Below are positions 2,182-23,194 of a DNA stretch of 32,257 nt, piece after piece (the first letter of the stretch is position 1; each line of letters opens with the position of its first letter). The notes beneath the pieces are model-generated. The model was not told the DNA's origin. It made no database searches and saw only the letters and a list, made by a program, of their open reading frames with translations. Origin of the DNA: Tannerella sp. GTDB lineage: Bacteria; Bacteroidota; Bacteroidia; Bacteroidales; Tannerellaceae. A program made the translations under genes and the position numbers. The stretch covers positions 1 to 32,257 of the forward strand of contig JAISXP010000168.1 of assembly GCA_031270465.1 (NCBI GenBank). The letters are read 5' to 3'.

Positions 2182-3525
2182 TCAAAACTTTATCCAGTCT
2201 ATTTCCACACTGCCTTTGCCTTCGAGCGAGACGAACAGGTCGTGTACCCCCGCTGGCGCGTTCTTGAGCGATACGCCGGTTTCTTTCCACTGTGCGCCTT
2301 TCGGCACTTTGATTTCGGCAATCACCGTTCCTTTTGCGCCGCCTGTCCGCACTAACAGTCTGGCTCCGGTCGGCGAAAGAGCGTTTACCTTGACGGCTTT
2401 CGGTTTGTCGTTTCCGAAGTCCACCTTATTGTACTGCACATACGCGCCGGCGGTGTTCAGGATGGTTTTCCATCCCTTAAAGGTGTTTGCCGTGTCGAGA
2501 AATTCAATGCTTGCGCCCGTATCGCTCAGGCGGCTGTAGCGGTCGAGCTGTATTTCTTTACGGGCGTCGGTGATGCCAACGCCTCGCAGGGTGGGAATCA
2601 CTTTCCGGATGGTGCCGTCGGGATTGAAGAACAGCGAATCCACGCGGATGGAACGGTTCTTGTCGAACCCGGGCGAGAGGTCGTTGTGATGATAGAACAG
2701 ATACCATTGCCCGTTATATTCGATGATGGAATGATGGTTTGTCCAGCAGCCTGTGGGCGATTCGTCCATTATCTCTCCTTTCATTTCGAAAGGGCCAAGC
2801 GGGTTGTCGCCCATGGCGTAGGCCAGCAGTTCCGTAGTATTGTTTTTTACCCACGGGAAAGTGAAATAATATATGCCGTTGCGTTCGAAAACAAAGGGGC
2901 CTTCCTTCAGACCCTTGTCGACTGCGGGCAATTCCTGTATGACAACCGGCTCGGAGGCCAATTCCAGCATGTTGTCTTTCAACTTTGCGCCGAGCAGGCC
3001 GCCGAAGCCCGCCCAATAGATGTAAGCCTGTCCGTCTTTATCAATCAGCGTGCAGGGGTCGATACCGGAAGTGCCTTTTATCGGTTCGGCTTGAGGTATG
3101 AAGGGGCCGTATGGCCTGTCGGATATTGCTACGCCTGTCATCATGCCTCTTCCCACGAGCGTATCTTTTGCGGGCGCAGGAAAGTAAAAGTAATATTTGC
3201 CGTCGCGCTCAATGCAGTCGGGCGCCCACAGGCTGTAGCCTTCGGGATTAACCCAGGGGATGTTGTCCTGACTTACGATTACGCCGTGGTCAGTCCAGTC
3301 GGTAAGGTTTTCCGATGAAAACACGTGGTAATCCGCCATGCAGAACCATTCCCTGAGCCGTTCGACGGGGCTGGGAATATCGTGCGAAGGATATACATAC
3401 ACTTTGCCTTCAAAGACCCTTGCCGTCGGGTCGGCGGTGAACTGGTCTCTGACAAAGGGATTCTGAGCAAACAATGCGCCGGTTACCAGCGTCATTGACA
3501 GCAATAACAGGACGTTTCTTTTCAT
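2182..3525 (-). CDS. Glycoside hydrolase family 43 enzyme with C-terminal CBM6-like domain
   Basis: This is a 447-residue exported protein with a Sec signal peptide ending near ALFAQ (residues 17-21). The five-bladed propeller of GH43 spans about 25-325. The three expected carboxylates are visible: D32 (FTADPTARV, general base), D156 (SGIDPCTLID, pKa modulator) and E208 (KGLKEGPFVF, general acid). Residues about 330-447 look like a CBM6 beta-sandwich, ending EIDWIKF with an AGAYVQYNKVDFG segment. The family includes alpha-L-arabinofuranosidases, beta-xylosidases, arabinanases and exo-galactanases, so the bond cleaved is not determined. It lies 26 bp after the oxidoreductase-like lipoprotein gene and 196 bp before the GH9 gene, in the same orientation. 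With GH9 it is the conventional hydrolytic part of PUL1. Confidence 0.9.
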   Translation of the reverse strand: MKRNVLLLLSMTLVTGALFAQNPFVRDQFTADPTARVFEGKVYVYPSHDIPSPVERLREWFCMADYHVFSSENLTDWTDHGVIVSQDNIPWVNPEGYSLWAPDCIERDGKYYFYFPAPAKDTLVGRGMMTGVAISDRPYGPFIPQAEPIKGTSGIDPCTLIDKDGQAYIYWAGFGGLLGAKLKDNMLELASEPVVIQELPAVDKGLKEGPFVFERNGIYYFTFPWVKNNTTELLAYAMGDNPLGPFEMKGEIMDESPTGCWTNHHSIIEYNGQWYLFYHHNDLSPGFDKNRSIRVDSLFFNPDGTIRKVIPTLRGVGITDARKEIQLDRYSRLSDTGASIEFLDTANTFKGWKTILNTAGAYVQYNKVDFGNDKPKAVKVNALSPTGARLLVRTGGAKGTVIAEIKVPKGAQWKETGVSLKNAPAGVHDLFVSLEGKGSVEIDWIKF

Positions 3526-3551
3526 GATGGAATATTTGTCGGATCAATGAT

Positions 3552-4946
3552 TCATTTTGTTTTTGCTTTCGCCATTTCCAGCGCGTGTGTTGTGACGTAG
3601 TATTTTGCAATCATGCAGGGTATTTCCCACGGGGGCAGGCCTCCTTCCCGGAAGTATTTCAGGAAATGCTCCGTGACCTGTCCGAAGTGAGCTTCGTGTC
3701 CGTTATGATAGTGTTCGGGTATGTCTACCTGCCACACACCCTTGCCGGACGGACGAACAGTAACGCCCGGATATTTGGCCTGTATGGCGGGCAGCGAGGC
3801 TTGCAGGGCTTTTTCGTATGCCGCCGGATCGCCCGCCGTATCCGTCGCCCTGATGGTTAAGACCGGCTTGTAGTTCTGCGCTTCCCCCTGTTCGATTATC
3901 AGATGCGCCCTGCTTCCCTTCATGATGGAATAATGCGTATCGCCTCCTCCTTCGGGACAGGCATAGTTCCAGATGACGGTGACCTTCGCATACACGTCTT
4001 TGATTTTGTAGAGGATGTCGCCGTTGGCATATACTTTCAGCGTGTCGCCGTCCACGTCTTTATGCAGAGAAGGCGGGTAGGATGTCAGTCCTGTCACTTC
4101 GGCAAACTGAGCCGGCGTCAGTGACGTAGTCCAGTGGCCGGCGTCTATCAGTTCGATGTCGCGGCGGCAGTCAATCGCCTGTTCGGGAAAAAGCTCCCAC
4201 TGCACCAGGTCGACCAGATGCACGGCCACATCCACAATGCCTTCGCCCTGAATCTCCGTGTCGAAAAACCAGGCGGGGCGCAAGAGAGGAGAGCCGGATA
4301 CGGTTTTGAGAAAATGATGCACACTCTCCATGACGACGGCCGGGTCGTCGGCGCTGCCCTGTGTCTGGTGTCCGTAGACGTCGGGCAGAAGCGAAAATTC
4401 CTTTTGAAGAATCGAGGTGATTTCAAAACGCTCGGTCATGATGTCGTAGAGCAGTACGTCCTTTTCGGCCGACGTGCGGAAGCATTTTTCCAGCAGTTCA
4501 AAACCGTCCGTATCAATTACCATCGGTTTGTCGGCCAGCACATGAAATCCGTTCGCAATGGCTTTTTCGATATAACCCGTTTTCAGTCCGTTGTTGCCGG
4601 CCGCCACTACCACGTTTCCTTTCTTTTCCGTCAACATTCGTTCCAGATAGTCTTCTCCGGTGTAGATGTGTTCGTCCCACTGTGTCGGACTGTCGGCGCG
4701 GGTGTTGTAGCTTTCTATCCGTTTCAGGTGTTCAGTCAGTTCATTTCCCTGGGGGGCATATACATGCACGGAGGGGCTGACTTGCGGATAGGCTGTTTTC
4801 TGTACCAGCGCCGCGTGGAAATGTCCGGGGTCGAGTGTGATCAGCCGGACTTCGTCCGTGCCCGGCGACTGTTTTTCCGTTTTCATCTGGCAGGAAATTA
4901 ATATCAGTGAGAATAAACATGCAGGGGCAAGGTGTAAATATTTCAT
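3552..4946 (-). CDS. Gfo/Idh/MocA-like lipoprotein with Bacteroides-type oxidoreductase C-terminal domain
   Basis: This 464-residue protein has a lipobox LISC (Cys19), so it should be a lipoprotein exported unfolded by Sec. The N-terminal half has a Rossmann-like layout. NVVVAAGNNGLKTGYIEKAI (111-130) matches the strand and helix before the active-site motif, and FHVLADKP (134-141) corresponds to the family EKP motif with Asp for Glu; K140 is kept. GIVDVAVHLVDLVQW (236-250) matches the family's active-site His/Asp helix. The first strand reads VRLITLDPGHFHAALVQK, with no GxGxxG dinucleotide loop, so NAD(P) binding is doubtful or altered. The C-terminal half resembles the putative oxidoreductase C-terminal domain of Bacteroides proteins. 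It starts 12 bp after the DUF6807 gene. The fold call is good, the reaction unknown. Confidence 0.82.
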   Translation of the reverse strand: MKYLHLAPACLFSLILISCQMKTEKQSPGTDEVRLITLDPGHFHAALVQKTAYPQVSPSVHVYAPQGNELTEHLKRIESYNTRADSPTQWDEHIYTGEDYLERMLTEKKGNVVVAAGNNGLKTGYIEKAIANGFHVLADKPMVIDTDGFELLEKCFRTSAEKDVLLYDIMTERFEITSILQKEFSLLPDVYGHQTQGSADDPAVVMESVHHFLKTVSGSPLLRPAWFFDTEIQGEGIVDVAVHLVDLVQWELFPEQAIDCRRDIELIDAGHWTTSLTPAQFAEVTGLTSYPPSLHKDVDGDTLKVYANGDILYKIKDVYAKVTVIWNYACPEGGGDTHYSIMKGSRAHLIIEQGEAQNYKPVLTIRATDTAGDPAAYEKALQASLPAIQAKYPGVTVRPSGKGVWQVDIPEHYHNGHEAHFGQVTEHFLKYFREGGLPPWEIPCMIAKYYVTTHALEMAKAKTK

Positions 4947-4958
4947 CTCAATGGAATT

Positions 4959-6191
4959 TTATTTGATTACTGTACTGGGAGGATAAGCGAAGTCGTTCCA
5001 GAGCCGGTCGGCCTGTTCGGGCGTCATGTTGCCTTCGAACGCCAGCACGCGATACTTTAATATGTAATGTCCATCCGGCAGAAGTTCCCAGTCCCGGTTT
5101 TTGGTGGGGGCGAAGTTGATAAAGGTGTCGCCCCGTCCGCCGTTCGCGTTCTGGTCCCAGATGCGCAGCGGTTCGGGGAAGCTGTAGTTGTCGGGATGTC
5201 CCATGAAGAGCAGCCCCGACCGTCCCGTCTGCGTATCGCCTGCGACGTATATCCAGCGGGCGTTCGTGCCGTCGATTTCCGGGCGTGTCTTGCCTTCGGA
5301 CGTCAGCATCTCGCTGTTCTCCTTTGTCCATTCGGCCGTGCCGCGCCAGCCGAAGCCGGCGTAGCGATAGGCTTCCAGCAGTATCGGCAGCGGAGTGGAC
5401 GGATGCAGGTGCGATTCGAAGTCCCAGAGGAATCCGTCCGGCACGTTCCAGGTTTTCACTTTCCAATATTCGTTCATAATCACCTTCTCTCCGCCTTCGT
5501 TAAAGATGTAATGGTCGAGGAGCGCCGTGAATCCCGCGAAGACGTCTCCTCCGGATGTCTCTTCGACGCTGCGTGCGCGAACCGTACCCGTTTTGCCGCC
5601 GATGTTCCAGAGGTCATACAGTTTGCCGTCGTACACCACGTGCGTCCACGGATTCCAGATGCCGAAGTGGTGGTAGTGGTCGGGCGGCTGGATGCGTGTC
5701 AGCACGTTTCCTTCGGGCGACCATGCGGGATGGATGTATCCGCCGCGGCGTTCGTAGGCCGGGTCGGCGCCGTCAGGCGGGGCGAGGCGGGCGTAGTTGT
5801 ACTGCAGGACGGGGCGCCCGTCTTTCTTCAGGACGAGCGCCTTTTGCGTGTCGTCCACTTCCATGACGGTTCCGGCCGGTGCGGTTTCTCCGGATTTGGC
5901 GACGAACGTGCGGACTGTTCCGGCAGGCGTTCGGCCGTCGAGTATCCAGTACAGGATGAGTTTTCCGTCGTCTGTCCGGTACAGTTGCGAAGCCGTTTCC
6001 TTCAGACCGGACGGCGTCTGTTCATACAGTGCGACGACGGACGACGCCGACGGGTTCAGTCGTGAGACGTCGGCCGATACTACGCAGTTCTCGCGCACGT
6101 AGTCGCCGCTTCGAACCGTTACTGTCATTTCTCCGGCACAGCAGGAGAGCGTCGTACAGATGGCTGCAAACAGGAATATCTTTTTCATCAT
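4959..6191 (-). CDS. DUF6807 (PmoA-like) exported protein
   Basis: This 410-residue protein has a signal peptide. An LSCC at 15-18 may be a lipobox, but that is uncertain. Residues 150-180 carry the family signature YIHPAWSPEG followed by PPDHYHHFGIWN, with clustered His (172, 174, 175) and H184, suggesting a metal or sugar site. The family was named after a supposed methane-oxygenase-like PmoA, but these soluble beta-rich proteins are not membrane methane monooxygenase subunits. No reaction is established that I can name. The family often sits beside Gfo/Idh/MocA oxidoreductases and sugar-related genes, as here: it lies between two of them, 33 bp after one and 12 bp before the next. Translation could begin at either of the two adjacent Met codons. 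I am confident of the family and have no evidence for the function. Confidence 0.8.
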   Translation of the reverse strand: MMKKIFLFAAICTTLSCCAGEMTVTVRSGDYVRENCVVSADVSRLNPSASSVVALYEQTPSGLKETASQLYRTDDGKLILYWILDGRTPAGTVRTFVAKSGETAPAGTVMEVDDTQKALVLKKDGRPVLQYNYARLAPPDGADPAYERRGGYIHPAWSPEGNVLTRIQPPDHYHHFGIWNPWTHVVYDGKLYDLWNIGGKTGTVRARSVEETSGGDVFAGFTALLDHYIFNEGGEKVIMNEYWKVKTWNVPDGFLWDFESHLHPSTPLPILLEAYRYAGFGWRGTAEWTKENSEMLTSEGKTRPEIDGTNARWIYVAGDTQTGRSGLLFMGHPDNYSFPEPLRIWDQNANGGRGDTFINFAPTKNRDWELLPDGHYILKYRVLAFEGNMTPEQADRLWNDFAYPPSTVIK

Positions 6192-6224
6192 GTCATATTG
6201 AATTTATCGTGTTTATACAGTGTG

Positions 6225-7589
6225 TCAGAAATTATACGGATACCGGTGCGGTCTTGCAATCATCGAATTGGCTTCGTCGTCGTTGAGGAAACGTTCCAGC
6301 ACGGGGTCCCAGTAGAGTTTGCGTCCGAGCTTCATGGCGATGTGCTGAAGGAGGCAGACCGTATTCGAGCGATGCGCCACTTCGGCCGGCGTGATGTTTG
6401 CCGCGCCCGTGCGGATGCTTTCCAGCCAGTTGCCGTGATGGTTGGTGCTGACTGCGAGTCGGACGGGGTCGTTGCCGGTCAGTGGCGAGAGGATTTTGGC
6501 ATCCGAAGCCTGGAGCGCTTTCGAGGTCGTGCTGATCGGGTCGCTGGGCGAGGCGGTGTATGCGCCGCGGCTGACGAAGATCCATCCTTCCGAGCCTGTA
6601 AGCAGCAGTCCATTGGGTTTCTCCGGGCTTTCCGTGATGCCGGCCACGACGACGTCGCCGGCGTAGCGCATCTCCGTTTCGTAGCGTCCGTGCACATCCC
6701 ACAGGCCGGAAGCGGGAAATTCGGCTGTGCCTGATATTTCAACGGGGCCTGAGTATTCCGTGTCCATCGCCCAGTGCGCGATGTCGAAATGGTGTGCGCC
6801 CCATCCGGTAATCATGCCGGCGCCAAACTGTTCGCAGCGCAGCCATCCCGGACGGTCGTAGCCTGTTTGCGGGTGGACGCGGTCGACGGTGTAGGGCACG
6901 TAGGGCGTCTGTCCGAGCCATGCGTCGTAGTTGAAGCCTTCGGGGACGGGCATTTCTTCGGGATTGCCGCCCGGAGGGTCGCCGGGGAGACGCACCTCGA
7001 TGCGCTGCAGTTGTCCGATACGTCCGTTGCGCACCAGTTCGCAAGCGACGCGAAACTGTGTCATCGACCGCTGCTGGCTGCCGATTTGCAGGACGATGCC
7101 GTTTGCATTAACGGCATTGCTCATCTTGCGTCCTTCCTCGATGGTGAGCGAGGTAGGTTTCTGCAGGTAGATGTGTTTGCGTGCCCGTGCGGCGTCGATG
7201 GCGATTTTGGCGTGCCAGTGGTCGGGCGTGCTGACCAGTACGGCGTCGACGTCCTTGTCGGCCAGCAGGTCGCGATAGTCCTGGTAGATGCGGACACCGC
7301 TGTACGGTTGCCCGGACTGCTTCGCGTAGTAGCTTTCCACCAACTGTTTGCCTTCTTCCGCACGGTGCATATCCAGGTCGGACACGGCCATGATACGGAC
7401 ATAATCGTATTTAATCGTATCCGGTATGTCGTGCACGCGCGAGATACGACCTGTTCCTATTGCACCTACGTTGATGCGGTTGGATGGCGCATTTTTTCCC
7501 ATTACGGACGAGGGAACAACCGTCGGAGCCACCAACAGACCGGCTCCTGCCACAAGGGACTTTTTGATAAAACTTCTTCGTGTTTCCAT
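6225..7589 (-). CDS. Gfo/Idh/MocA family oxidoreductase with Tat-type signal
   Basis: This 454-residue protein begins METRRSFIKKSLVAGAG, a twin-arginine (RRSFIKK) signal, which implies export folded with bound cofactor. The Rossmann domain starts INVGAIGTGRIS (39-50), a GxGxxG loop with Ser at the last Gly. STPDHWHAKIA (120-130) is the typical cofactor-binding strand. YLQKPTSLT (141-149) is the EKP-type motif with Gln for Glu; K144 is kept. GWGAHHFDIAHWAMD (262-276) holds the conserved His pair and Asp of the catalytic face. Family members oxidise or reduce sugar hydroxyls or aldehydes with NAD(P); some catalyse redox-assisted glycoside cleavage. It is the first gene after the gap behind SusD1 and heads the DUF6807, lipoprotein, GH43, GH9 run. 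Substrate is unknown, but periplasmic glycan chemistry is likely. Confidence 0.9.
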   Translation of the reverse strand: METRRSFIKKSLVAGAGLLVAPTVVPSSVMGKNAPSNRINVGAIGTGRISRVHDIPDTIKYDYVRIMAVSDLDMHRAEEGKQLVESYYAKQSGQPYSGVRIYQDYRDLLADKDVDAVLVSTPDHWHAKIAIDAARARKHIYLQKPTSLTIEEGRKMSNAVNANGIVLQIGSQQRSMTQFRVACELVRNGRIGQLQRIEVRLPGDPPGGNPEEMPVPEGFNYDAWLGQTPYVPYTVDRVHPQTGYDRPGWLRCEQFGAGMITGWGAHHFDIAHWAMDTEYSGPVEISGTAEFPASGLWDVHGRYETEMRYAGDVVVAGITESPEKPNGLLLTGSEGWIFVSRGAYTASPSDPISTTSKALQASDAKILSPLTGNDPVRLAVSTNHHGNWLESIRTGAANITPAEVAHRSNTVCLLQHIAMKLGRKLYWDPVLERFLNDDEANSMIARPHRYPYNF

Positions 7590-9667: not shown

Positions 9668-12600
9668 TCAGAAACTTACATTTAACCCCAGCAGGAAGTT
9701 GCGGCTCACGGGCACGCCGAAGCCTACCCAGAGCTGGCGTTCCAGATTCGTGGTCGTACTGTATTGCGTCGGTTCGGGGTCTACGCCTGCGCCTTCTTTC
9801 ATGTAGGGCGAGAAGAAGGCCGGGAACGGATTCTGGCAGGTCACGTAGAGACGTGCCGACCGTGCGCCGACGTGGTTCAGGATGTTCTTCTGGAACGTAT
9901 ATCCGAGCGAGAGGGTACGCACCTTGAGGAACGTGGCGTCGAAATATCGCAGAGTGGAGGCAAAGTCGATCGTTTCGCCGCTCTGGTTACCCGGCTGCGG
10001 ATATTTGTTGACCGGATTGGTGGGCGTCCAATAGTCTACTTTCGTCGAGTTGCGGCGTCCGGTATGCGTGATGTTGTAATCGTAGTGGCGCATACTCATC
10101 AGATGACCGCCCATGCGGAAGAAACTGACGGCCGAAAAGTCGAAGTTCCTGTATCCGAAACGCAGGGTGAGACCGCCGGAAAAGTCGGGTTCGAACGTGC
10201 CCACGATCTTGCGATCGCCGTCGGCCGTGATTGTGCTGCTGTTGTCGAGGTCGGCCACCTTGATCTGGCCGGGTTTATATCCGTACTTGGCGGCTTCTGC
10301 CTCTTCGCCCAGCTGCCAGATGCCGGAATGGACGTAGTCGTACATCACGTTGATGGGATAGCCTACAAACCAGCCGTTGTCGATATTACGTTCTTCGCCG
10401 CTGGCCAGCGCCGTAATCTTGTTGCGGTTGAAGTAGATATTGAAGTCGGCGTTGAAACTGAAATCTCCCGCTGTCTGAGGTTTGATTATTTGTCCATTTA
10501 TTGCAAATTCCAGTCCCTTGTTTTCGGTCGACCCCACGTTTTGCATGATAGGTCTGTCCACGCCGCTCGACGACGGCAGTCTGACTGAGAGCAACAGGTC
10601 GCTGGTCTTTTGCAGATAGACGTCGAGGTAGCCGCTGATGCGTCCGTTGAACAGGTTGTAGTCGACGCCCAGGTTGTAGTTCTGGGTATACTCCCATCCC
10701 AGGTTGGAATTGGGCAGGTCGGTGACGTAATACCCGTATTGTCCGGTGGCGCCGGGGCCGTAGTTGTAGTAAGCCATGCCCAGTCCTCCCAGCGTCTGAT
10801 AAGGACTGACAGCCTGATTGGAAGTCTGTCCGTAACCCAGACGGAGTTTCAATTGCGAAATGGATTCGATGTCCTTCATAAACGCCTCGCGGTTGGCGTT
10901 CCAGCCCAGCGAGAAGGCGGGATAGCTGTGCCATTTTTTACCGGGCGACAGTACCGACGAACCGTCCGAGCGGAAGGTGGCGGTCAGCATGTAGCGGTCG
11001 TCGTACGAATACTGTACGCGTGCCATAAGCGACTGCAAGCCCCGCTGCCAGTAATTCTGGTTGCTGGTGCCCGAGTTGATGTTTTTCTCGCCGTTGGCCA
11101 TGCTCAGGTTGTAGTACAGCAGGTAGTCGGCGGCAATGTCGGTAGCCTGCATCGACGAGCGCTGGAATTGCGACTGCTCGGCCGAATACATAGCCGTGGC
11201 GTTCAGGCGGTGTTTCTCGGCGAGTACCTTATTATAATATAACAGGTTTTCGACCGTCCACTGCTGCCATTGAGTGTTCCGTACCGTAGCCGAAGATACA
11301 CTGGGTGGATTACCCGGATAATCGGCGCCGTTGCTGAATAAGCCGTAGTTCTCCTGCGAATAACTCAAACCCACGTTGAAACGGTACGTCAGTCCGTCGT
11401 AGAGTTTCACTTCGCCATAGAGCGAGTTGAACGAGGCAATACGCTTGCTCTGCTCTGCCCGTGCGTTTTCCGTTACCAGCGTATAAAGCGGATTGGTAAA
11501 CGTGGCGTCGATGGTGCCGTCGAGCGGGAAGGTGACAATCGACCCGTCTGCGTTGTGCGAGGGGGAGATGGGCGTCATGTTGGTCAGGATGTCCCCCATG
11601 GGCGACCATCCGAGGTTGTCGCCGACGCCGAACGTCGTGTTGGTGGTCAAACCCACTTTGACGTATTTGCCGATTTCCTGGTCGACCGTCGTACGCAACG
11701 TGAAGCGGGTGTATTCCTGCAGGGGAACAACGGCCGTTTCGTTGAAATAGCCGCCGCTGAACGAGTAGGCGCCCCGCTGGCTGCCGGAACTTACGGACAG
11801 CTCATGGTTGGTGACATGCCCCGGCTGATAGAACAGATCCTGCCAGTCGGTGTAGTTGCCCGAAGCAATTACTTCCTGCTGCAGGACGGAATAGGGATAT
11901 GTCCCCGCCTTGAGCGAAGCGTCGTGAAAGGCGACGAATTCGGGGCCGCTGTACGCGTTGTAGCGTTTCAGTACGTTCTTCACGCCGTAGTAACCGCTGT
12001 AGTTCACCGCCGGAGTCTGTCCCAAACTGCCGCGGTTGGTAGTGATCAGGATTACGCCGTTGGCGCCGCGCGAACCGTAGATGGCCGTCGACGAAGCATC
12101 CTTGAGGATGTCGATGGTCTTGATGTCGTTCGGCGAGATGTCGGAGAGCGAGCCGTTGAACGGGATACCGTCGAGGACGATCAGCGGGTTGTTGTCGGCG
12201 CTGAGCGAACGCTCGCCGCGGATACGTATCTGCATGGCAGAACCCGGAGCGGTACCTGTTTGCAGGATTTCGATACCCGGCATGCGTCCCTGCAGGGCAG
12301 CCGAAGCGTCGACGGCGGGGATTTCCTGTATAATCCGCGCATCGGCCGAGGCGATGGCGCCCGAAATGTCGGCCTTTCGCGCCGTGCCGTAGCCCACGAC
12401 CACTACCTCTTCAAGGCTTTGCGTGTCTTCTTCCAGGGTAATGGTTAACGCTGTTTTTCCACGTACGCTGACGGCTTGCGTCATAAATCCTACATACGAT
12501 ATATTTAATGTAGCATTTTCCGCCACGCGCAGCGAAAAACTTCCATCCATATCGGTCACAGTTCCGTTCGTGGTACCCACCTCGAGTATACTGGCGCCGA

Positions 12601-12736
12601 TAATCGTTTCACCAAGGGCGTCTTTTACGACACCCGTCACGGTCTTTGTCTGCCCCCATGCGAAGACGGGGATGAAAAAGATCAGGCACAGCCCGATCAC
12701 TCTTCTTAGTTTAGTGTTCGTCATACAATCATACAT
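9668..12736 (-). CDS. SusC/RagA-type TonB-dependent transporter, PUL1
   Basis: This 1022-residue outer-membrane receptor has a signal peptide ending at FAWGQ (residues 25-29). A carboxypeptidase-regulatory-like domain (about 31-103) includes the common TTNGTVTDMDGSFSLRV. Next is the SLEEVVVVGYGT segment (107-118) typical of the TonB-interaction region, then the plug with IRIRGERSLS, LIVLDGIPFNG and IYGSRGANGVILITT (219-233), and a long C-terminal barrel ending in VSF. There is no STN domain, so unlike SusC2 it should not signal to a FecR. The start could be Met1 (12736) or Met5 (12724), the latter giving a more standard signal peptide. It is the first gene of PUL1, followed by its SusD, and imports oligosaccharides through the outer membrane with TonB energy. 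Confidence 0.96.
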   Translation of the reverse strand: MYDCMTNTKLRRVIGLCLIFFIPVFAWGQTKTVTGVVKDALGETIIGASILEVGTTNGTVTDMDGSFSLRVAENATLNISYVGFMTQAVSVRGKTALTITLEEDTQSLEEVVVVGYGTARKADISGAIASADARIIQEIPAVDASAALQGRMPGIEILQTGTAPGSAMQIRIRGERSLSADNNPLIVLDGIPFNGSLSDISPNDIKTIDILKDASSTAIYGSRGANGVILITTNRGSLGQTPAVNYSGYYGVKNVLKRYNAYSGPEFVAFHDASLKAGTYPYSVLQQEVIASGNYTDWQDLFYQPGHVTNHELSVSSGSQRGAYSFSGGYFNETAVVPLQEYTRFTLRTTVDQEIGKYVKVGLTTNTTFGVGDNLGWSPMGDILTNMTPISPSHNADGSIVTFPLDGTIDATFTNPLYTLVTENARAEQSKRIASFNSLYGEVKLYDGLTYRFNVGLSYSQENYGLFSNGADYPGNPPSVSSATVRNTQWQQWTVENLLYYNKVLAEKHRLNATAMYSAEQSQFQRSSMQATDIAADYLLYYNLSMANGEKNINSGTSNQNYWQRGLQSLMARVQYSYDDRYMLTATFRSDGSSVLSPGKKWHSYPAFSLGWNANREAFMKDIESISQLKLRLGYGQTSNQAVSPYQTLGGLGMAYYNYGPGATGQYGYYVTDLPNSNLGWEYTQNYNLGVDYNLFNGRISGYLDVYLQKTSDLLLSVRLPSSSGVDRPIMQNVGSTENKGLEFAINGQIIKPQTAGDFSFNADFNIYFNRNKITALASGEERNIDNGWFVGYPINVMYDYVHSGIWQLGEEAEAAKYGYKPGQIKVADLDNSSTITADGDRKIVGTFEPDFSGGLTLRFGYRNFDFSAVSFFRMGGHLMSMRHYDYNITHTGRRNSTKVDYWTPTNPVNKYPQPGNQSGETIDFASTLRYFDATFLKVRTLSLGYTFQKNILNHVGARSARLYVTCQNPFPAFFSPYMKEGAGVDPEPTQYSTTTNLERQLWVGFGVPVSRNFLLGLNVSF

Positions 12737-13130: not shown

Positions 13131-15923
13131 TTATTGCAGAGATTTAAAACTGTAAATACCTTGCCCGACTTTTACCGTACGGTATCCGTTCTCAAAGCCG
13201 ATTGCTTCTATACCGGGCGTCTGTCCAATATCATTCCCGCTTTCGGTAACGGTTGCATTTTCGCCGGCAGGAATATATATGGTTGCATGACTGCCGACAG
13301 GGACAGTTACATTCATTTCCAGATGCGCGCCCTTTCGTTTGATGTCGGAAATCACTTTCCCGTAAGGTGTCATGCCGGAATAATATACTTCATCCAGTTT
13401 TTCGGGCAGCAAAGGCTTAATGATAATGTGCCTGTAACCGGGTTCATTTTCGTCGGCATTCACTCCGGCAAGCGTACGGTAAAACCAGGTAAGTCCGCCG
13501 CCAAACATGGGGTGGTTACGTGAACTTTGTCCGTTCCAGTGTTCCCATGTCACAGTAGCGCCCTGCTCAATCCAGTGGCCGAAGCCGGGAAAATCGTGTT
13601 TGTTCATTGCTTCATAAGCCACATCATTCATTCCGTTTGCCGCGAGCGTTTCGAAGAAAAATTGAGTGCCGAATATGCCGGTGTTCAGATGTCCGTCGTA
13701 TTTCTCTACAATTTCTCTGTACAAGGTTTTCACAACCTTGTCGCGACGTTCCTGCGGCATCCCGATGACGAGTGCAAAAATATTGCTTCCGAAATCGCCG
13801 AATGTTTCGTTTTCGCTGTCATAGAATTTACTGTTGAACGCCTGTTTTACATTGTCGGCAATCGCGGAATATTTTTCATAATCTGCCGTTTGATTCAATG
13901 CTTTGGCTGCTTTTGCGGTGAAGTCGGCGCAGCGCCACAGGAAAAACGTATGAACCAGTTCTTCGGAGGGGACGCTGTAGGCCGGCGCCCAGTCGCCCAG
14001 ATTCAGCCAGTAATTGGGTGTGGTTGCATTCAGATTGGCTCTTTGCGAAAACATGGTGCCGTCTTCCGTCAGCCAGGTGAGCATGTATCGTACCTGTTCC
14101 TTCATGGCGTGATAATTATCCGCGAGTATCTTTTTGTCACCGTAATGGATGTAAAATTCCCACGGCATGATGTTCATCGCCGCACCCCAGGGCACACCGC
14201 CGCCGCAACCGGGTTGCCACGGCGCTCCGTTGGGCACATAACCCGTTTCCACATCCTGCGCATCCCGGATGTCGCGAATCCATTTCCGATAGAATGCGGC
14301 GGCATCAAAGTTGTGCATCACTGTGACGCAGGCCACTTGTCCGTCGCCCGTATAGGGTGAACGTTCGCGATGCGGACAGTCGCTCATAATCCCGCCATGT
14401 ATGTTGTCGAGCAGGCTGCGACGCCATATTGTGTTGATTTGATTGAACAGATCGCTGGATGTGCGGAAGCCGGCCGATATTTTCATATCCGTATTGACGG
14501 CCTCGGCTACGAGCATTTCCGGCTTTAACTCGTCTACACCGCCGATTATTGCCTTACTGAACACGTACCATGTGAAACGGGGTGCACAGGATTCTTTTTC
14601 GTCTCCTTTAAATACATATTTCTGAACGCCGAGAGGCGATTCGCAAATATATTTCACGTTCAGCGTATCTCCTCTGCGTCCTTTAATATCTTTGAAATGT
14701 ATCCAGCCGGATATTTCCACTCCGAAATCTACTTCATAAGTCCCGTCCGCATTTCTGGAGAGGGATACCGGTTCCAGACGCTCCGTCACTTTGTCCGTGG
14801 GCGCCGTGTGAGCAGTCAGTACGCCTGCGGGCGCTTCGCGCAAAACGGCCTGCTGCCATGCCGCATCGTCGCAGTCGACTGTCGCCCACCCTTCCGTTTC
14901 AAGGGTTGCATCATATATTTCACCATCATACACTCCATTCATTACGATGGGAGATTCCTTCACTTTCCATGTCCCGTCCGAACAGACGGTATCTTCGGTG
15001 CCGTCTTCATAAACAATCTCGATCCGGCACAGGAAACGGGGAGAACCGAAAGATGCGACCCAGTGGGAAGTACAATCATAGAAACCGTCGCCCACAATCG
15101 CCCCTACCACATTCTCCTGTTCCCGAAGCATGTCGCCGATGTCATAGGCAAGATACATCACCCGGTGGTCGCGAAAATTATTGTTGATGGCGATATAGGT
15201 ATATTTTATGCCTTCGCGGGCGGTATAGTTTGTAAAGTTGGGAACCAGACAGTCATTGCCCACCTTCTCTCCGTTCATGTACAGTTCGAAGTAACCGAGA
15301 CCCGTCACAAAAGCCTTTGCCGAAGCCACCTTTTTGGTCACATCAAATTTTTTGCGAAACATGGGCGCCGGATAATGAGGGTATTCCTGTCTTTCGCGGC
15401 TGCCTTCGGACGCCGGCTTTATTACCTTGCGAGGCTCTTCTCCCTGCCAGGGGGCGCCTATCCAGCGAGCCTGCCATTCGTCGGGAGACAGAATCCCCAT
15501 TCCCCAACGTGCCGGCCTGCTCCATTCCGATGCGCGGTCGCGGCTGTCCCATACCATCACCTGCCACCAGTAATCCTTGCCGGATTGCAGCGTCTCTCCC
15601 TCATAAGGTATCAGCCAGGAATCCGATGACCGTATTTTCCCACTGTCCCAGATATCGGCCTCGCCTTTCCGCAGGTTTTCTTCGGACGACGCGACGCAAA
15701 TTCTGTACGCCTGCTGATACTCTCCGCGGATATCACCGGAAACCGCTTCGTTTATCCATGACAGGCGGGGCGACATTTCATCAACAGTCGACGGGTTTTC
15801 CATATTCTCGCAGGTTAATGCGCCCGGCTGTATGTTGCTTTTTTCCGTACACGATGCCAGTGCCGAGGCTATCATGCAGCACAGGACGGCAATCCTGTTT
15901 TTCAATAACATTTTCGTTCTCAT
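13131..15923 (-). CDS. GH78 alpha-L-rhamnosidase lipoprotein, PUL2
   Basis: This 930-residue protein has a lipobox LASC (Cys25). Domain order follows bacterial GH78: an N-terminal Fn3-like module with YWWQVMVWDS (118-127), a beta-sandwich rhamnosidase N domain (about 185-360), a linking beta domain (about 370-480), the (alpha/alpha)6 barrel (about 485-830) and a C-terminal beta domain. The active site is recognisable: DCPHRERSPYTGD (515-527) contains the general-acid Glu E520 with D515 and D527, and TWEHWNG (792-798) contains E794 in the place of the catalytic base. It removes terminal alpha-L-rhamnose by inversion. It lies 216 bp after SusD2 in the same direction, separated by two palindromes. 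It is the only hydrolase of PUL2 in view, suggesting a rhamnose-capped glycan or glycoside as target. Confidence 0.95.
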   Translation of the reverse strand: MRTKMLLKNRIAVLCCMIASALASCTEKSNIQPGALTCENMENPSTVDEMSPRLSWINEAVSGDIRGEYQQAYRICVASSEENLRKGEADIWDSGKIRSSDSWLIPYEGETLQSGKDYWWQVMVWDSRDRASEWSRPARWGMGILSPDEWQARWIGAPWQGEEPRKVIKPASEGSRERQEYPHYPAPMFRKKFDVTKKVASAKAFVTGLGYFELYMNGEKVGNDCLVPNFTNYTAREGIKYTYIAINNNFRDHRVMYLAYDIGDMLREQENVVGAIVGDGFYDCTSHWVASFGSPRFLCRIEIVYEDGTEDTVCSDGTWKVKESPIVMNGVYDGEIYDATLETEGWATVDCDDAAWQQAVLREAPAGVLTAHTAPTDKVTERLEPVSLSRNADGTYEVDFGVEISGWIHFKDIKGRRGDTLNVKYICESPLGVQKYVFKGDEKESCAPRFTWYVFSKAIIGGVDELKPEMLVAEAVNTDMKISAGFRTSSDLFNQINTIWRRSLLDNIHGGIMSDCPHRERSPYTGDGQVACVTVMHNFDAAAFYRKWIRDIRDAQDVETGYVPNGAPWQPGCGGGVPWGAAMNIMPWEFYIHYGDKKILADNYHAMKEQVRYMLTWLTEDGTMFSQRANLNATTPNYWLNLGDWAPAYSVPSEELVHTFFLWRCADFTAKAAKALNQTADYEKYSAIADNVKQAFNSKFYDSENETFGDFGSNIFALVIGMPQERRDKVVKTLYREIVEKYDGHLNTGIFGTQFFFETLAANGMNDVAYEAMNKHDFPGFGHWIEQGATVTWEHWNGQSSRNHPMFGGGLTWFYRTLAGVNADENEPGYRHIIIKPLLPEKLDEVYYSGMTPYGKVISDIKRKGAHLEMNVTVPVGSHATIYIPAGENATVTESGNDIGQTPGIEAIGFENGYRTVKVGQGIYSFKSLQ

Positions 15924-15998
15924 TACCGTAATGATTTTATAATATAAATTTTACATATTCCGTTTCGCTCATCTCCTGTCCGGATGAAGTTCCAACCT

Positions 15999-16077
15999 CG
16001 TCCTGCAGGACGGCAAAAAACGCGTTTTTTATTCTCCTGCAAATTGCAGAACGACAAAAAACGCGTTTTTTATTCTC
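15999..16077. repeat. Tandem A6-CGCG-T6 palindromic repeats between susD2 and the GH78 gene
   Basis: The identical 23-bp string C-A6-CGCG-T6-ATTCTC occurs at 16014-16036 and 16055-16077, a period of 41 bp. Each has a perfect 16-bp palindrome core. Flanking them are CGTCCTGCAGGACG (15999-16012, perfect palindrome) and CTGCAAATTGCAG (16037-16049). GCAGGA before copy 1 can also pair with TCCTGC after it, giving a larger hairpin. On the minus strand each core ends in a T-run, so the pair could act as intrinsic terminators after SusD2. They could instead be protein-binding sites or a dispersed repeat. Confidence 0.65.
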
Positions 16078-16139
16078 AATTCTTTGTTAGTATAAAGTTG
16101 TATTTACTAATTGAACTTACGCTGTCCGCTCTTCACCGA

Positions 16140-17699
16140 TTAATAGTCCTTGTAACCCGGATTCTGCACCAGGTTCTCGTTCACTTCCAGTTCGCGTTTC
16201 TGGAAGGCGTAGACCAGACGTTCCTGCGTCACCTGGAAGGCGCCGGGGAGGATCTGCGGGTCGAGCACCTTCATCCGTTCGCCGAAAGCGTTCATTACGC
16301 TTATTGCCTGTCCGGTGCGTATCAGGTCTGTCCAGCGGTGATTCTCGAATGCCAGTTCGTGGCGCATTTCGTCGGAAACCTTCTGCTTGTCGACCGACGT
16401 CAGGGCAGGCAGTCCGGCGCGTGTGCGCACCTGGTTGATCCAGGGCAGCGCTTCCGCGTTCTTGCCCTGTTCCACCAGACATTCGGCCAGCAGCAGCAGT
16501 GCTCCACCATAGCGATAAACAGGGAAGTTGTCGCCCGTCCGCAACCCATAGTTATAGGGCGGATGGTAGTATTTCCTTACGAAATACCGGAAGACTTTCC
16601 CTTCGGGGACGGCATATCCCTTCGGCTCGGCAAGATTCTCGAACGTAAACTGTTCGCCGTCTGCAATTCCTTCGGCCACGGCAATGGACACCGACAGACG
16701 CAAATCGCCCTCTTCGTAGGAATCAATCATTTCCTGCGTGGGCACGCTCCAGCCACCGGAGGTGTAGGCATAGTTGTTGGCGCTGATACCCATCAGCAGC
16801 TCGTTGTTGTTGCATTTGGGAATCTGGCGCCATGTCAAGTCGTTGTGCAGGCCGCCGTCGCCGTCGAGATACTGGATTTCAAAAATGGATTCCTTTCCGT
16901 TTTTGTTCCCTAAGCTGTAGATGTCGGCGTAATCGTCTTCGAGCGCATAGTTCATGCGGGTGACGTCGAGCAGATCCTGCTCTGCCTTGGCGTATTCGCG
17001 GGACGGCTTGGACATGTAGGCGTAAGCCCTCAAGACTTTTGCCGCGCCCATCGTAGCCCTGCCCGACTGCGGGAAGGAAGTGGCGACCGGTATGCCGAGC
17101 GTGATGGATTCGCTCACGTCGGCGATGATCTGGTCGTACACCGCTTCCACCGTGGAATTGGGGAGGAACGACTCCGCTTCGTTAGTCACTTCGTGAAGCA
17201 TCAGCGGCACAGGCCCCCAGTGGGTGGCCAGGTCAAAATAGAAGAACGCGCGCAGGAAGAGCGCTTCGGCGCGTACCTTCGCCTTTTCGGCGTCGGTCAG
17301 TTCCGAAGCATCCAGGCGATCGAGCGCGGTATTGACCCGCGAGATACCTGAATAAAGCTCGTTATAACGGGTGTTGATCCAGTTGCCGGTCGTTTCGTCA
17401 TCGAGAAACAGGCCGATTACTTCGGTGCTCAGGTACGGCCCGCGGTCGCCCGAGTAGCGGGTGAAGTGGGCATTGTCCGAACGCATCTCGTCCATGATCA
17501 TACCGTTTGCGGTCAAAGTACGCACTCGTTGGTAGGCGCCTATCAGAGCCTGGTCGAAATGCGTCGACGTTTTATAAAACGTGTTCGACGTGACGGATGT
17601 TTCGGGATAGATTTCCAGGAAACTGTCCGAACAGGAAGCGAGGGAGAAAATCCCTGCAATGGCAATGAATAATATTGTCTTTTTCATATTTCTAATCAT
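16140..17699 (-). CDS. SusD-like (RagB/SusD) surface glycan-binding lipoprotein, PUL2
   Basis: This 519-residue lipoprotein has a lipobox SLASC (Cys23), and the mature N-terminus CSDSFLEIYPET is typical. EALFLRAFFYFDLATHWGPVP (about 144-164) and the C-terminal ENHRWTDLIRTGQA are the characteristic SusD segments, and it ends VQNPGYKDY. Translation may start at Met1 (17699), 6 bp after the SusC2 stop, or at Met5 (17687), which gives the standard MKKTILF signal start. It pairs with SusC2 to capture and hand over ligand at the cell surface. It is followed by the palindromic repeats and then the rhamnosidase gene. The call is secure; ligand unknown. Confidence 0.96.
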   Translation of the reverse strand: MIRNMKKTILFIAIAGIFSLASCSDSFLEIYPETSVTSNTFYKTSTHFDQALIGAYQRVRTLTANGMIMDEMRSDNAHFTRYSGDRGPYLSTEVIGLFLDDETTGNWINTRYNELYSGISRVNTALDRLDASELTDAEKAKVRAEALFLRAFFYFDLATHWGPVPLMLHEVTNEAESFLPNSTVEAVYDQIIADVSESITLGIPVATSFPQSGRATMGAAKVLRAYAYMSKPSREYAKAEQDLLDVTRMNYALEDDYADIYSLGNKNGKESIFEIQYLDGDGGLHNDLTWRQIPKCNNNELLMGISANNYAYTSGGWSVPTQEMIDSYEEGDLRLSVSIAVAEGIADGEQFTFENLAEPKGYAVPEGKVFRYFVRKYYHPPYNYGLRTGDNFPVYRYGGALLLLAECLVEQGKNAEALPWINQVRTRAGLPALTSVDKQKVSDEMRHELAFENHRWTDLIRTGQAISVMNAFGERMKVLDPQILPGAFQVTQERLVYAFQKRELEVNENLVQNPGYKDY

Positions 17700-17705
17700 T
17701 TTAAA

Positions 17706-20700
17706 TTAAAACTTTAAGTTTACGCCCACACTGAAAACCCTCGCTGTGGGATAGGAACTGCTGTCTATACCCTGGCGCAGTCCGTCGGAACCGTTGTTGT
17801 TCACTTCCGGATTCATGCCGGAATAGTTGGTCAGTGTCAAGATATTCTGTCCGCTTAGGAATACACGCAGGCTGTTGATGTACGGATTCACCTTGAACGG
17901 GACGGTATAGCCGACGGTGAGGTTTTTCACCATCAGATACGAGCCGTCGAACACCCAGCGGGTGTTGTTGTAGCGGAACAGTTCGGTCGTTCCTGCGCGG
18001 GTGCGCGGGATGTTGCCCTGTCCGGGATTGCTTTCCGAACGCCAGCGCTCGGCTACTTCCTTGGTCACGTTGAACACGCCGTCGATATTTTCCGTCCACT
18101 CCAGCTGGCCGTCGATGATGTCGCCGCCCACGGCTCCGGCTATCACGATGCCGGCATCGAACTGTTTGTACGAGAATTCGTTGGTGATGCCGTAGAGGAA
18201 GTCGGGATTCGGGTTGCCGATAAACGTGCGGTCACTCATGTCGATGATATTGTCGCCGTTCAGGTCTTTCATTCGCGCGGTGCCGACCATCGAAGAGGCA
18301 TGTTTCGGCCCGGCTTCGTATTCGGCCTGCGTCATGAACACGCCGTCGTAGATGTATCCGTAGAACAGTCCCAGCGGCTGGCCTACTTCCGTACGGTTAT
18401 AGTCACCCTGGTTTGCATTTCCGCCGATGGGCGTATCGTTCGTGCCCAGTTTGACGGCCTTGTTGCGGTTGAACGTAATGTTGACGTTGGTATTCCACTT
18501 GAATTCACCTACCATATTGCGTGTTTCCAGTCCAAATTCGTGTCCCCAGAAATGGAACTCGCCGATATTGGAACGGATGGTGCTGAAACCGGCCTGATTG
18601 GGGATGTCGATATTGTAGAGGAATCCGTCGGTTTTCTTCCAGTAATAATCGTACACAAAGAAGATGCGGTCGTTGAACAGTCCCAGATCCAGTCCGAGGT
18701 CGTACTGTTCGGTCGTTTCCCACGTCAGTCCGCTGTTTCCGATGCGGCTGGGTGCACGTCCGGCGGCAATGGAGTTGTTGATGATGTAATTGGCAGATGT
18801 GACTTCCGGAATCCATTCGTAGTTACCTATTTCATAGTTCCCCAACTTGCCGTAGCTGCCCCTGACTTTCAGATAGCTCAGCTTGTCAATATTCGACAGG
18901 AACTCTTCGTCGGAAGCAATCCATCCGAGCGAGACGGAAGGGAAGTTCGCCCATTTGCTCAAAGGCCCGAAACGGGAGCAGCCGTCGCGTCTGAACGATG
19001 CCGAGAGCAGGTATTTCCCCATGTAATCGTAATTGAACCGCGCCAGATACGAAATCATCGACCATTCGCCTTTCCCGCTGTCGGAGCCGGCGTCGGCTAC
19101 CCGACTGGATGCGGCCGTAAACCAGGAAACTTCATCGTCGGGATAGTTCGAGGCATTGATTCGCGCCCTTTCATCCGCCGTTTTCTGCGTGGTATATCCC
19201 AGCAGCACGTCGAAGTGATGTTTGTCGGCAAAGGTTTTGTCGTAGTTCAGCGTGTTTTCCACCAGCCAGTTCAAATGTTTCCGGGTGTCGTAGCGTCCGG
19301 TTGCAGGCTTGGGCGGAGCAGAGAACATGCCGCCGTTGACTTCGGAAGGTACCCATTCCTGATAGGTGCGGTTGAAAATTTCCATGTTGCCGCTCAGGCG
19401 GTATTTCAGGCCGTCGATCAGTTTGATTTCCGTATAGAGATTGTTCCGGCTGATGGCCATTGTCGAAGGCGTTTTCCGTTCCTGCAGCACAAGATAGTAA
19501 TTCGCATTGGCAAACATGCCCGGAGGCGAATACGAAATCGGATAGGTGCCGTCGTCGTTTTTGTATTTCAGCTGCGGGTCCATCAGGAACGACGAGCCGA
19601 TGATATTGCGTCCGTTGCCGATACCCGGCGTAATCTGTCCCTTCATGTACGAAGCCGAGACGTTCAGCCCGAAAGTGATGCGTTCCGTAGCGTCGAAGCG
19701 GTTGTTCGCGCGAGCGTTGAAGCGCTCGGAATAGGTGTTCAGCACTACGCCTTCGGTCTTGTTGTAGCCTACACTGACCGACGATTTGACTTTTTCGGTG
19801 CCGGAGGTAAGCGACAGGTTGTAGTTTTGTGTTTTGGCCGTTCTCAGCAGCACGTCGAACCAGTCCGTTCCTTCCTGCACGCTTTCGGGATTCCGGTACA
19901 CGTCGGGCACGCCGCCGGTGTAGCCTTCATAGAGTGCGGCATCTTCGTAATATTCTTTCTTGAACTGCGCAAATTCCTGTGCGTTCATCACGTCCGGCCG
20001 TCCTCTTTCGCCCGTATTCTGCCATCCGACATTGGCGCTGAATTCGATATTCGTCTTTCCGGCTTTGGCGGATTTGGTCGTGATCAGGATGACGCCGTTA
20101 GCTGCACGCGACCCGTACAGCGCCGCCGATGCTGCATCTTTCAGGATGGTGATGTTCTCGATTTCGTCGGGGCTTAGCGTCTCCATTCCGGTTGTGGACG
20201 GGAAGCCGTCGATGACTACGAGCGGCGAGTTGCCGCCGTTGGGCGAAGCCTGTCCGCGAATACGGAACGTCAGACCGGCGTTAGGCTCTCCGTTGGCCTG
20301 ATAGATCTGTACGCCGGAGAATTTCCCCTGTAACTTTTGCCCGATATTGGAAACCGGCATGTCCGAAAGTTCGTCGGTATTCAACTTGCTCATGGCGCCG
20401 GTGACGGAACGGGCTTTCTGCGTACCGTAGGCTACGACGATGACTTCATCCAATGCTTTCGCATCCTCTACGAGCTTGATTATAAGAGATTTGCCCCCCC
20501 CCGTGGATAATACGCTGATTTCCTGGGTGATGTATCCAACGAAGGATACCTGCAGCACGGCATTGTCGGCCACGGTCAGCGAGAAGTTTCCGTCCAGATC
20601 GGTCACTGCGCCGTTGGTTGTGCCTTTTTCGATGACGTTCGCACCGATAATGGTTTCGCCCCGGACGTCGGTGACCGTGCCGGTGATTCGCTTGCCGGAC

Positions 20701-21107: not shown

Positions 21108-21252
21108 ACTTTTGTTTGTTTTAAGTGAATACTAATTTATAAACTACTGTGTTTGTTTGGTTTGGCTGCGGCAAGGCGCTTTCACTGCCTGTCGTGGCAT
21201 TTTGTTTTACAATGTTTTTTCTCATAGGCGTTAATGTTTAAAATTTGACATG

Positions 21253-22230: not shown

Positions 22231-22431
22231 TCAGAAATTCAAAATTCAAGATTCAAAAGTTCAAAGATTCAAGAGTTTTCTGCAGGAACGCCTCATGTAT
22301 CGATAGAACAGTTTATCCCGTGCATAGTATATATACGTATGAGGAGCAGAAATCCGCCAAAAGAGAGTGAAAAAAAATGCATAAATCTTTTTTGAAGTGT
22401 TCCGGGCTTCAAGCGCGTGTGTTTTTTGCGC
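22231..22431. other. 201-bp sigma-fecR spacer with short TTCAA-type repeats
   Basis: No gene is visible. Positions 22236-22274 are a run of imperfect ATTCAAR units on the plus strand. Its 13-mer TTCAAAGATTCAA (22260-22272) recurs in inverse orientation at 26907-26919 over the M14 stop codon. The rest is AT-rich and includes TATATATACGTAT near 22327. No -7 box for fecR is evident. The spacer may have arisen from simple-repeat expansion. Confidence 0.45.
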
Positions 22432-23022: not shown

Positions 23023-23039
23023 TCTGTCATTTGATTTTG

Positions 23040-23047
23040 CAAAGTTA
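23040..23047 (-). promoter_or_regulatory. Candidate -7 box for the sigma factor gene
   Basis: The minus strand reads TAACTTTG, matching TAnnTTTG. It lies only 17 bp upstream of the chosen ATG, so transcription would start about 10 bases before translation, an unusually short leader. No clear TTTG is present at the -33 position. A sequence match this short may be chance. Confidence 0.4.
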
Positions 23048-23194
23048 GAATTTTCCGCTGTAAAATGAAAATTCGGGAATAAGAAATCTTTTTTCCGTAT
23101 ATTTATTGTACGTGAGACAAAGATGTTCACTGACACACGGAACGCCTTCTCCCCTACCCGCCCGAACAGGAAATAAAAATCCCACAAAAATGGT

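What the first reader, a model, noticed from the sequence alone, without database searches (positions are those of the whole stretch)
2182..7589. Two exported Gfo/Idh/MocA-type proteins and a DUF6807 protein embedded in a PUL
The sequence shows a tight same-strand run of Tat oxidoreductase, DUF6807, lipoprotein oxidoreductase and GH43, with GH9 beyond, directly behind a SusCD pair. Gfo/Idh/MocA enzymes usually act in the cytosol on free sugars; here both carry export signals. Work on gut and soil Bacteroidota has shown that such enzymes can oxidise glycosides at C3 so that the bond is broken by elimination rather than hydrolysis. The usual DUF1080 partner is absent in view, and DUF6807, whose function is unknown, sits between the two oxidoreductases. 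The inference is that this locus may run a variant keto-glycoside pathway in which DUF6807 supplies the missing lyase, hydratase or isomerase step.
Basis: partly seen in the sequence, partly recalled or inferred. Interest (0 to 1): 0.72.

Follow-up and report, generated by a model that had tools for sequence, protein, structure and literature searches.

The report
Exported enzyme set linked to glucuronoxylan
A bacterium carries a conserved set of exported enzymes of unknown chemistry which, in some relatives, sits beside the enzymes that remove and degrade the glucuronic acid side chains of plant xylan, making it a testable candidate for a missing step in plant-fibre breakdown.

Summary
In detail: window 2182-7589 encodes, behind a SusCD pair, a Tat-type Gfo dehydrogenase, DUF6807, a PF16490 lipoprotein and GH43-CBM6, then GH9. 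The set is real: all 20 of 296 phylum genomes with PF16490 also have DUF6807 (p=1e-20), and Gfo is about 16 times denser next to DUF6807 than five or more genes away. DUF6807 is fused elsewhere to ThuA, DUF1080 or PF16490, so keto-sugar chemistry is likely. Some related operons add UxaC, mannonate oxidoreductase or UxuA, and GH67, GH115, CE15 or GH10; in a sister operon a 76% identical GH43-CBM6 is fused to GH115. The substrate is therefore probably (4-O-methyl)glucuronic acid of glucuronoxylan. PF16490 lacks the canonical nucleotide-loop glycine in 70 of 70 sequences, so 'two oxidoreductases' is doubtful. DUF6807 is predicted to have a galactose-mutarotase/PL26-like fold. My preferred, unproven reading: a periplasmic keto-sugar module that readies (methyl)glucuronate for the fructuronate-mannonate route, possibly by removing the methyl ether. 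Against it: this 91% complete genome shows no GH67 or GH115.

The parts
6225..7589 (-). Tat-exported Gfo/Idh/MocA dehydrogenase; likely the NAD-carrying redox enzyme
   Evidence: PF01408, PF19051 and TAT_signal_seq hits; best NCBIfam NF058561 glycoside 3-dehydrogenase, 134 bits, below its cut-off of 750; in 106 aligned relatives R4 102, R5 98, G45 103, K144 105, H266 106, D269 101
7449..7457 (-). nucleotide loop G45-T46-G47 of the Gfo
   Evidence: hhalign against PF16490; G45 in 103 of 106, G47 in 91 of 106
4959..6191 (-). DUF6807 protein with signal-type N-terminus; predicted galactose-mutarotase-like supersandwich
   Evidence: PF14100 213 bits; model pLDDT 93.3, pTM 0.91; fold matches
5667..5681 (-). 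D171-H-Y-H-H175 motif of DUF6807; H174 99%, H175 92%, H172 82% over 197 domains
3552..4946 (-). PF16490 lipoprotein related to Gfo; retains K140, H243, D246 (70 of 70)
   Evidence: PF16490 400 bits; closest solved chain 4oo3, E 1.4e-191; C19 93% in 70 relatives
4812..4832 (-). D39-P-G-H-F-H-A45 in place of the GxG nucleotide loop; position 39 is D 61, N 6, A 2, E 1 and never G; P40, H42, F43, H44, A45 in 70 of 70, G41 in 69
2182..3525 (-). GH43+CBM6, beta-xylosidase/arabinofuranosidase type; 76% identical over 447 aa to the N-terminal half of a GH43-CBM6-GH115 fusion in L176
3..1985 (-). GH9 (CelD_N + GH9), cut by the contig end
7917..9641 (-). SusD
9668..12736 (-). SusC

Best explanation
The run is a periplasmic keto-sugar module tied to glucuronoxylan. 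SusCD imports oligosaccharides; hydrolases trim them; the Tat-exported Gfo, carried out folded with its NAD, oxidises a ring carbon of (4-O-methyl)glucuronic acid or its glycoside; DUF6807, the PF16490 lipoprotein and, in relatives, ThuA act on the keto sugar (elimination, water addition or isomerisation); reduction gives a glucuronate that enters the cell and runs through UxaC and a mannonate oxidoreductase to UxuA, or to a LarA-like/PfkB/6PGD route. Shown: gene order, co-occurrence, export-type N-termini, loss of the nucleotide-loop glycine in PF16490, linked GH67/GH115/CE15/UxaC/UxuA in some relatives, predicted DUF6807 fold. Inferred: substrate, redox position, NAD carriage, each enzyme's step. 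The job I think most likely is removal of the 4-O-methyl group, because some of these operons hold both the enzymes that release methylglucuronate and those that degrade unmethylated glucuronate, and something must join the two.
For: PF16490 in 20 of 296 genomes, all 20 with DUF6807 (p=1e-20). GH67 in 14 of those 20 against 39 of 276 others (p=1.2e-7), and within 15 kb of PF16490 in 3 of the 14 (G033, G227, G286; expected 0.09). Among 80 named loci GH67 lies in 4 (expected 0.05). Locus L282: GH67, SDR of the mannonate-oxidoreductase cluster, GH115, Gfo, Gfo, PF16490, SASA esterase, polysaccharide deacetylase, GH10 with glucuronoyl esterase, GH3. Genome G227: UxaC, SusCD, glucuronoyl esterase, DUF6807-ThuA, Gfo, PF16490, GH115, GH67, GH10. 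UxuA and mannonate oxidoreductase in operon with the set. Sister operon L176 holds GH43-CBM6-GH115; its Gfo is 91% and PF16490 71% identical to the window's. Compartments: signal-type N-terminus in DUF6807a 130/144, PF16490 62/79, ThuA 29/31; Tat motif in Gfo 102/131; SDR 4/46, UxuA 1/19. This genome has an SDR/PfkB/6PGD/LarA-like set, 63-78% identical to one beside DUF6807 in L080.
Against: No GH67 or GH115 match in the window's genome (90.7% complete), and only a 33%-identical UxuA-like stretch of about 124 residues. In the window the neighbours are GH43, GH9 and, further on, GH78; no uronate enzyme was found among the 19 ORFs scanned. Within DUF6807-positive genomes the GH67 link of PF16490 is weak (14 of 20 against 8 of 19, p=0.08). 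Three of the 20 PF16490 genomes have neither GH67 nor GH115 (G000, G134, G171), and G182 counts only through a weak partial GH115 match. Five of 20 have PF16490 away from DUF6807. Most trio loci show no GH67 or GH115 in view. Nothing shows demethylation.
Confidence: 0.55

Rival explanations
1. Keto-assisted glycoside cleavage: Gfo oxidises C3 of a bound sugar (here perhaps glucuronic acid), the bond leaves by elimination, and DUF6807 (with or without PF16490) replaces DUF1080 as eliminase or hydratase. No demethylation.
For: DUF6807 fused to DUF1080 and ThuA; best NCBIfam model for the Gfo is a glycoside 3-dehydrogenase; DUF1080 nearly absent from the clade; oxidation-elimination-hydration-reduction operons are established elsewhere (PMC10628242, section 7).
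Against: A few of these operons already hold the hydrolases GH67 or GH115 for this bond; DUF6807 is predicted mainly beta, whereas AtOGE is a TIM barrel. The fold of DUF1080 was not compared.
Confidence: 0.25
2. The Gfo is a GH109-like self-contained NAD-dependent glycosidase, and DUF6807 is a mutarotase that equilibrates the released sugar; PF16490 is a binding protein.
Against: Many Gfo enzymes match far better than GH109; a mutarotase would not readily explain fusion to ThuA, DUF1080 and PF16490 or the near-perfect co-occurrence.
Confidence: 0.12
3. The trio acts on another uronic-acid or neutral glycan in this genome; the glucuronoxylan link applies only to other members.
For: No GH67 or GH115 in the genome; GH78 and GH9 nearby; DUF6807 occurs in many contexts.
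Against: Sister operon L176 carries GH43-CBM6-GH115 with a 91% identical Gfo; the window's GH43 matches xylosidases.
Confidence: 0.2

Closest known systems
BT_2158-type 3-keto-glycoside pathway (Gfo 3-dehydrogenase with DUF1080)
   Same: Tat-type Gfo as best family match, PUL setting, exported partners
   Different: 134 bits against a cut-off of 750; no DUF1080 in the operon; DUF6807 and PF16490 instead. The main paper on this pathway is recalled; it is not held
ThuAB trehalose/maltitol operon
   Same: Gfo plus ThuA; DUF6807 is fused to or beside ThuA in relatives
   Different: No ThuA in the window; exported rather than, as recalled, cytosolic; hexuronate context
Agrobacterium GlycDH/AtOGE and levoglucosan operons (PMC10628242, abstract and sections 7 and 8 read; PMC7676230, search listing only)
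   Same: Logic of oxidation, elimination, hydration, reduction
   Different: AtOGE is a TIM barrel; DUF6807 is predicted mainly beta
Galactose mutarotase and PL26 exo-rhamnogalacturonan lyase folds
   Different: About 10% identity; active-site equivalence not tested
UxaC-mannonate oxidoreductase-UxuA glucuronate pathway
   Same: These genes sit in or beside the operon in some relatives
   Different: The exported Gfo, DUF6807, PF16490 and ThuA are not part of the known pathway (recalled)

Membership tests
BT_2158-type keto-glycoside pathway | Gfo reaches the curated cut-off of NF058561 | tested here: not met
   133.9 bits against 750
BT_2158-type keto-glycoside pathway | DUF1080 in the same operon | tested here: not met
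   none among the 19 window ORFs scanned; 1 of 76 related loci. The operon may continue beyond the contig end
BT_2158-type keto-glycoside pathway | C3 oxidation of glycosides | not testable with these tools
   needs enzyme assay
ThuAB | ThuA next to Gfo | tested here: not met
   absent among the window ORFs scanned; as a separate gene near DUF6807 in 16 of 76 related loci, fused in five more
DUF6807 (PF14100) | score over the gathering cut-off | tested here: met
   212.6 against 27
Gfo/Idh/MocA dehydrogenase, gene 6225-7589 | Rossmann domain with nucleotide-loop glycine and catalytic Lys/His/Asp | tested here: met
   PF01408 61.2 against 24; G45, K144, H266, D269; their roles are recalled
Gfo/Idh/MocA dehydrogenase, gene 3552-4946 | first glycine of the nucleotide loop | tested here: not met
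   position 39 is D, N, A or E in 70 of 70; PF01408 23.6, under 24
PF16490 | score over the gathering cut-off | tested here: met
   400 against 27
Polysaccharide utilisation locus | SusCD pair with glycoside hydrolases on one strand | tested here: met
Glucuronoxylan locus | alpha-glucuronidase GH67 or GH115 in operon or genome | tested here: not met
   no match in this 90.7% complete genome; GH115 present in sister operon L176
Galactose mutarotase | supersandwich fold | tested here: met
Galactose mutarotase | catalytic residues at the same place and activity | not tested
   no coordinates at hand
GH109 | sequence membership | tested here: inconclusive
   6t2b E 2.3e-5, far weaker than other Gfo chains

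The most novel reading that the evidence does not exclude
Gfo, DUF6807, PF16490 and ThuA are the missing route by which Bacteroidota remove the 4-O-methyl group from methylglucuronic acid of xylan: a ketone made next to or two carbons from the ether (C3 or C2) lets methanol leave by enol-ether hydrolysis or beta-elimination, after which water addition and reduction give plain glucuronate. DUF6807 would be a new fold for this kind of keto-sugar step.
Probability: 0.33. Interest if true: 0.85.

Novelty: new variant of a known kind. Interest (0 to 1): 0.6.

Why it matters
Methylglucuronic acid is an abundant side chain of hardwood xylan (abstract of PMC11636049, seen in a listing), and none of the papers listed by five searches appeared, from title and abstract start, to deal with how bacteria remove its methyl ether (listings of 1, 0, 15, 20 and 12 papers). 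Two uncharacterised Pfam families, DUF6807 and PF16490, would gain a substrate class and a pathway, and the question becomes testable with a few purified proteins or a deletion in a cultured relative.

Tried and rejected
One search covered the wrong family (PF20613) by my mistake; repeated with PF14100. Chance neighbours rejected. DUF6807 as a methane oxygenase, a label met in PMC5342196, was set aside: no supporting evidence turned up and the neighbours are sugar genes. Sequence search of DUF6807 against solved structures gave nothing useful (best E 0.43). A metal site in the His cluster could not be tested, because no coordinates are laid out. A carboxylate-driven lyase removing the methyl group and yielding an unsaturated uronate was judged less likely, because the SDR of L197 scores as mannonate oxidoreductase (354 bits, over its cut-off of 281) far above KduD (133-142). 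The PF16490-GH67 link is partly explained by DUF6807 presence (p=0.08 within DUF6807 genomes).

Limits of the counts. The GH67 locus counts leave out L346, fetched because GH67 was already known to lie there, and L282, fetched as an unlinked PF16490 locus. Named and unnamed sets overlap: L073, L074, L111 and L114 hold DUF6807 proteins identical to ones in the named set; of 197 DUF6807 domains 192 are distinct. My ORF caller was crude: it lost the DUF6807 gene in L172 and L207; no core was recognised in L118 and L157, nor a DUF6807a core in L223 and L246. One search does not count ThuA in fused proteins. Signal and lipobox counts come from simple patterns, not a trained predictor. In one search genome size is a mean of listed sizes, and the 3-of-14 linkage count was made by hand.
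Full report
What is there. The window is one whole contig of a 3.03 Mb draft genome in 183 contigs, 90.7% complete. On the minus strand it reads SusC, SusD, Tat-type Gfo, DUF6807, PF16490 lipoprotein, GH43-CBM6, GH9, the last cut by the contig end. A second SusCD pair with GH78, FecR and an ECF sigma factor lies upstream. Named relatives with the most similar DUF6807 (up to 86%) are draft genomes labelled Tannerella sp. or Prevotellaceae; their isolate codes look like termite-gut samples, which is recall and not from a call.

Is the set real? DUF6807 (PF14100) is in 39 of 296 phylum genomes with 81 matches. I fetched 68 stretches around these matches and added the window and two own-genome stretches; a DUF6807 core was recognised in 69 of 71. 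Gfo genes make up 26 of 137 immediate neighbours and 5 of 416 genes at five or more places (p=1.4e-12). PF16490 is in 20 of 296 genomes and every one also has DUF6807, against 19 of 276 others. By coordinates, 15 of the 20 have the two on one contig within about 10 kb; G249, G190, G150, G033 and G171 do not. In 80 named loci, the best 80 of 578 confirmed and so biased to close kin, many cut by contig ends, a DUF6807a core was recognised in 76: same-strand Gfo within three genes in 58, PF16490 in 42, ThuA as a separate gene in 16, SDR in 12, UxuA in 10; SusC anywhere in 22, DUF1080 anywhere in 1. Five further named loci have a DUF6807-ThuA fusion. The named and unnamed sets overlap slightly.

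Fusions. DUF6807 is fused to ThuA (L108) and to DUF1080 (L100), to PF16490 (L246), and to a DUF7133-HEAT-cytochrome c protein (L146). ThuA and DUF1080 are tied in print to 3-keto sugars: PMC9007349 (passages read) calls BT2157, a DUF1080 protein, a 3-ketotrehalose hydrolase; PMC4765114 (passages read) links a thuAB-like operon to 3-keto-maltose. In a tree of 197 DUF6807 domains the clade of 110 that holds the window has PF16490 within four genes in 71, Gfo in 83 and DUF1080 in 1; a second paralogue clade of 29 has another DUF6807 within four genes in 25. The near absence of DUF1080 is thus a trait of the clade.

Substrate. In L197 the operon includes an SDR that passes the NCBIfam cut-off for D-mannonate oxidoreductase (354 against 281) and UxuA, mannonate dehydratase. 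SDR and UxuA of the same clusters stand with the set in L195, L197 and L201 among others. UxaC sits in L281, L108 and, as a fragment, L078. About 0.05 are expected in each set. L122 also has a glucuronoyl esterase (PF22244; I call this family CE15 from recall). L282, a PF16490 locus without linked DUF6807, holds GH67, SDR, GH115, two Gfo, PF16490, a SASA esterase, a polysaccharide deacetylase, GH10 with PF22244, and GH3. Genome G227 holds UxaC, SusCD, PF22244, DUF6807-ThuA, Gfo, PF16490, then GH115, GH67, GH10 and GH3. Sister operon L176, the closest relative with a long stretch, reads SASA esterase, Gfo, DUF6807, PF16490, GH9, GH9, GH43-CBM6-GH115; its GH115 is cut by the end of the fetched stretch (200 of 335 profile positions). 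Its Gfo is 91%, PF16490 71% and GH43-CBM6 76% identical to the window's. Across 296 genomes PF16490 goes with GH67 (14 of 20 against 39 of 276) and GH115 (10 of 20 against 36 of 276, weak partial matches included).

Against. The window's own genome has no GH67 and no GH115 match. Its best UxuA-like stretch is 33% identical. It does have an SDR, PfkB, 6PGD and LarA-like set on contig 163, 63-78% identical to the set directly upstream of DUF6807 in L080; that this set carries mannonate through gluconate to 6-phosphogluconate is my inference from recalled LarA-like epimerases. Within DUF6807-positive genomes PF16490 does not significantly predict GH67 (14 of 20 against 8 of 19, p=0.08). Three of 20 PF16490 genomes have neither alpha-glucuronidase, and G182 counts only by a weak partial GH115 match. 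Most trio loci show no GH67 or GH115 in the stretch at hand.

Mechanism. My reading is a periplasmic keto-sugar module for the (methyl)glucuronic acid of xylan. Free glucuronate needs only UxaC, the oxidoreductase and UxuA to reach 2-keto-3-deoxygluconate (established pathway, recalled), so further exported proteins in the same operons call for another task. Removing the 4-O-methyl ether is the obvious gap. A C2 ketone would let methoxide leave C4 by beta-elimination; a C3 ketone could do so through an enol ether. This is chemistry reasoned here and not shown.

Literature seen. DUF6807 appears in one held paper, and there only as the DUF number reached by a Pfam release. PF14100 occurs in two listed papers: PMC5342196, where it lies between beta-galactosidase genes (passages), and PMC10291797, not read. 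PMC10628242 was read in abstract and sections 7 and 8; PMC6353982 and PMC5306329 in passages. No listed paper, by title and abstract start, addressed bacterial 4-O-demethylation of methylglucuronate; most subscription papers are not held, and searches listed only 15 of 25, 20 of 47 and 12 of 52 papers.

Noticed in passing
L146:7023-10808 and, by length, L139, L145, L148, L149, L150, L152, L153: DUF6807 at the start of 1,260-1,337-aa proteins; in L146, the only one scanned with Pfam, followed by DUF7133, HEAT repeats and cytochrome c, suggesting a version that passes electrons to a haem.
   Followed up: no
L197:10190-11089 and similar: A second, distant DUF6807 paralogue (tree clade of 29) stands close behind the first in many operons.
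   Followed up: partly
L236:14316-16920, L346:620-3344: A pair of an unknown 372-375-aa protein and a 492-531-aa protein (weakly DUF7133-like in L236) follows PF16490 in Fodinibius salsisoli and in G227.
   Followed up: no
L284 (own contig 163): 6PGD, LarA-like, PfkB and SDR genes together; possible UxuA-free route from mannonate through gluconate.
   Followed up: partly
L090 (own contig 171, bases 6-167): C-terminal fragment of another DUF6807 at a contig end, followed by two unlabelled genes and a Gfo.
   Followed up: no
L161 and L163 (own contigs 176 and 147): Gfo next to DUF1080, so the same genome probably also holds the usual keto-glycoside arrangement.
   Followed up: no
window 13131-23187: Second SusCD pair with GH78 rhamnosidase, FecR and ECF sigma factor upstream; looks like a separate PUL.
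   Followed up: no
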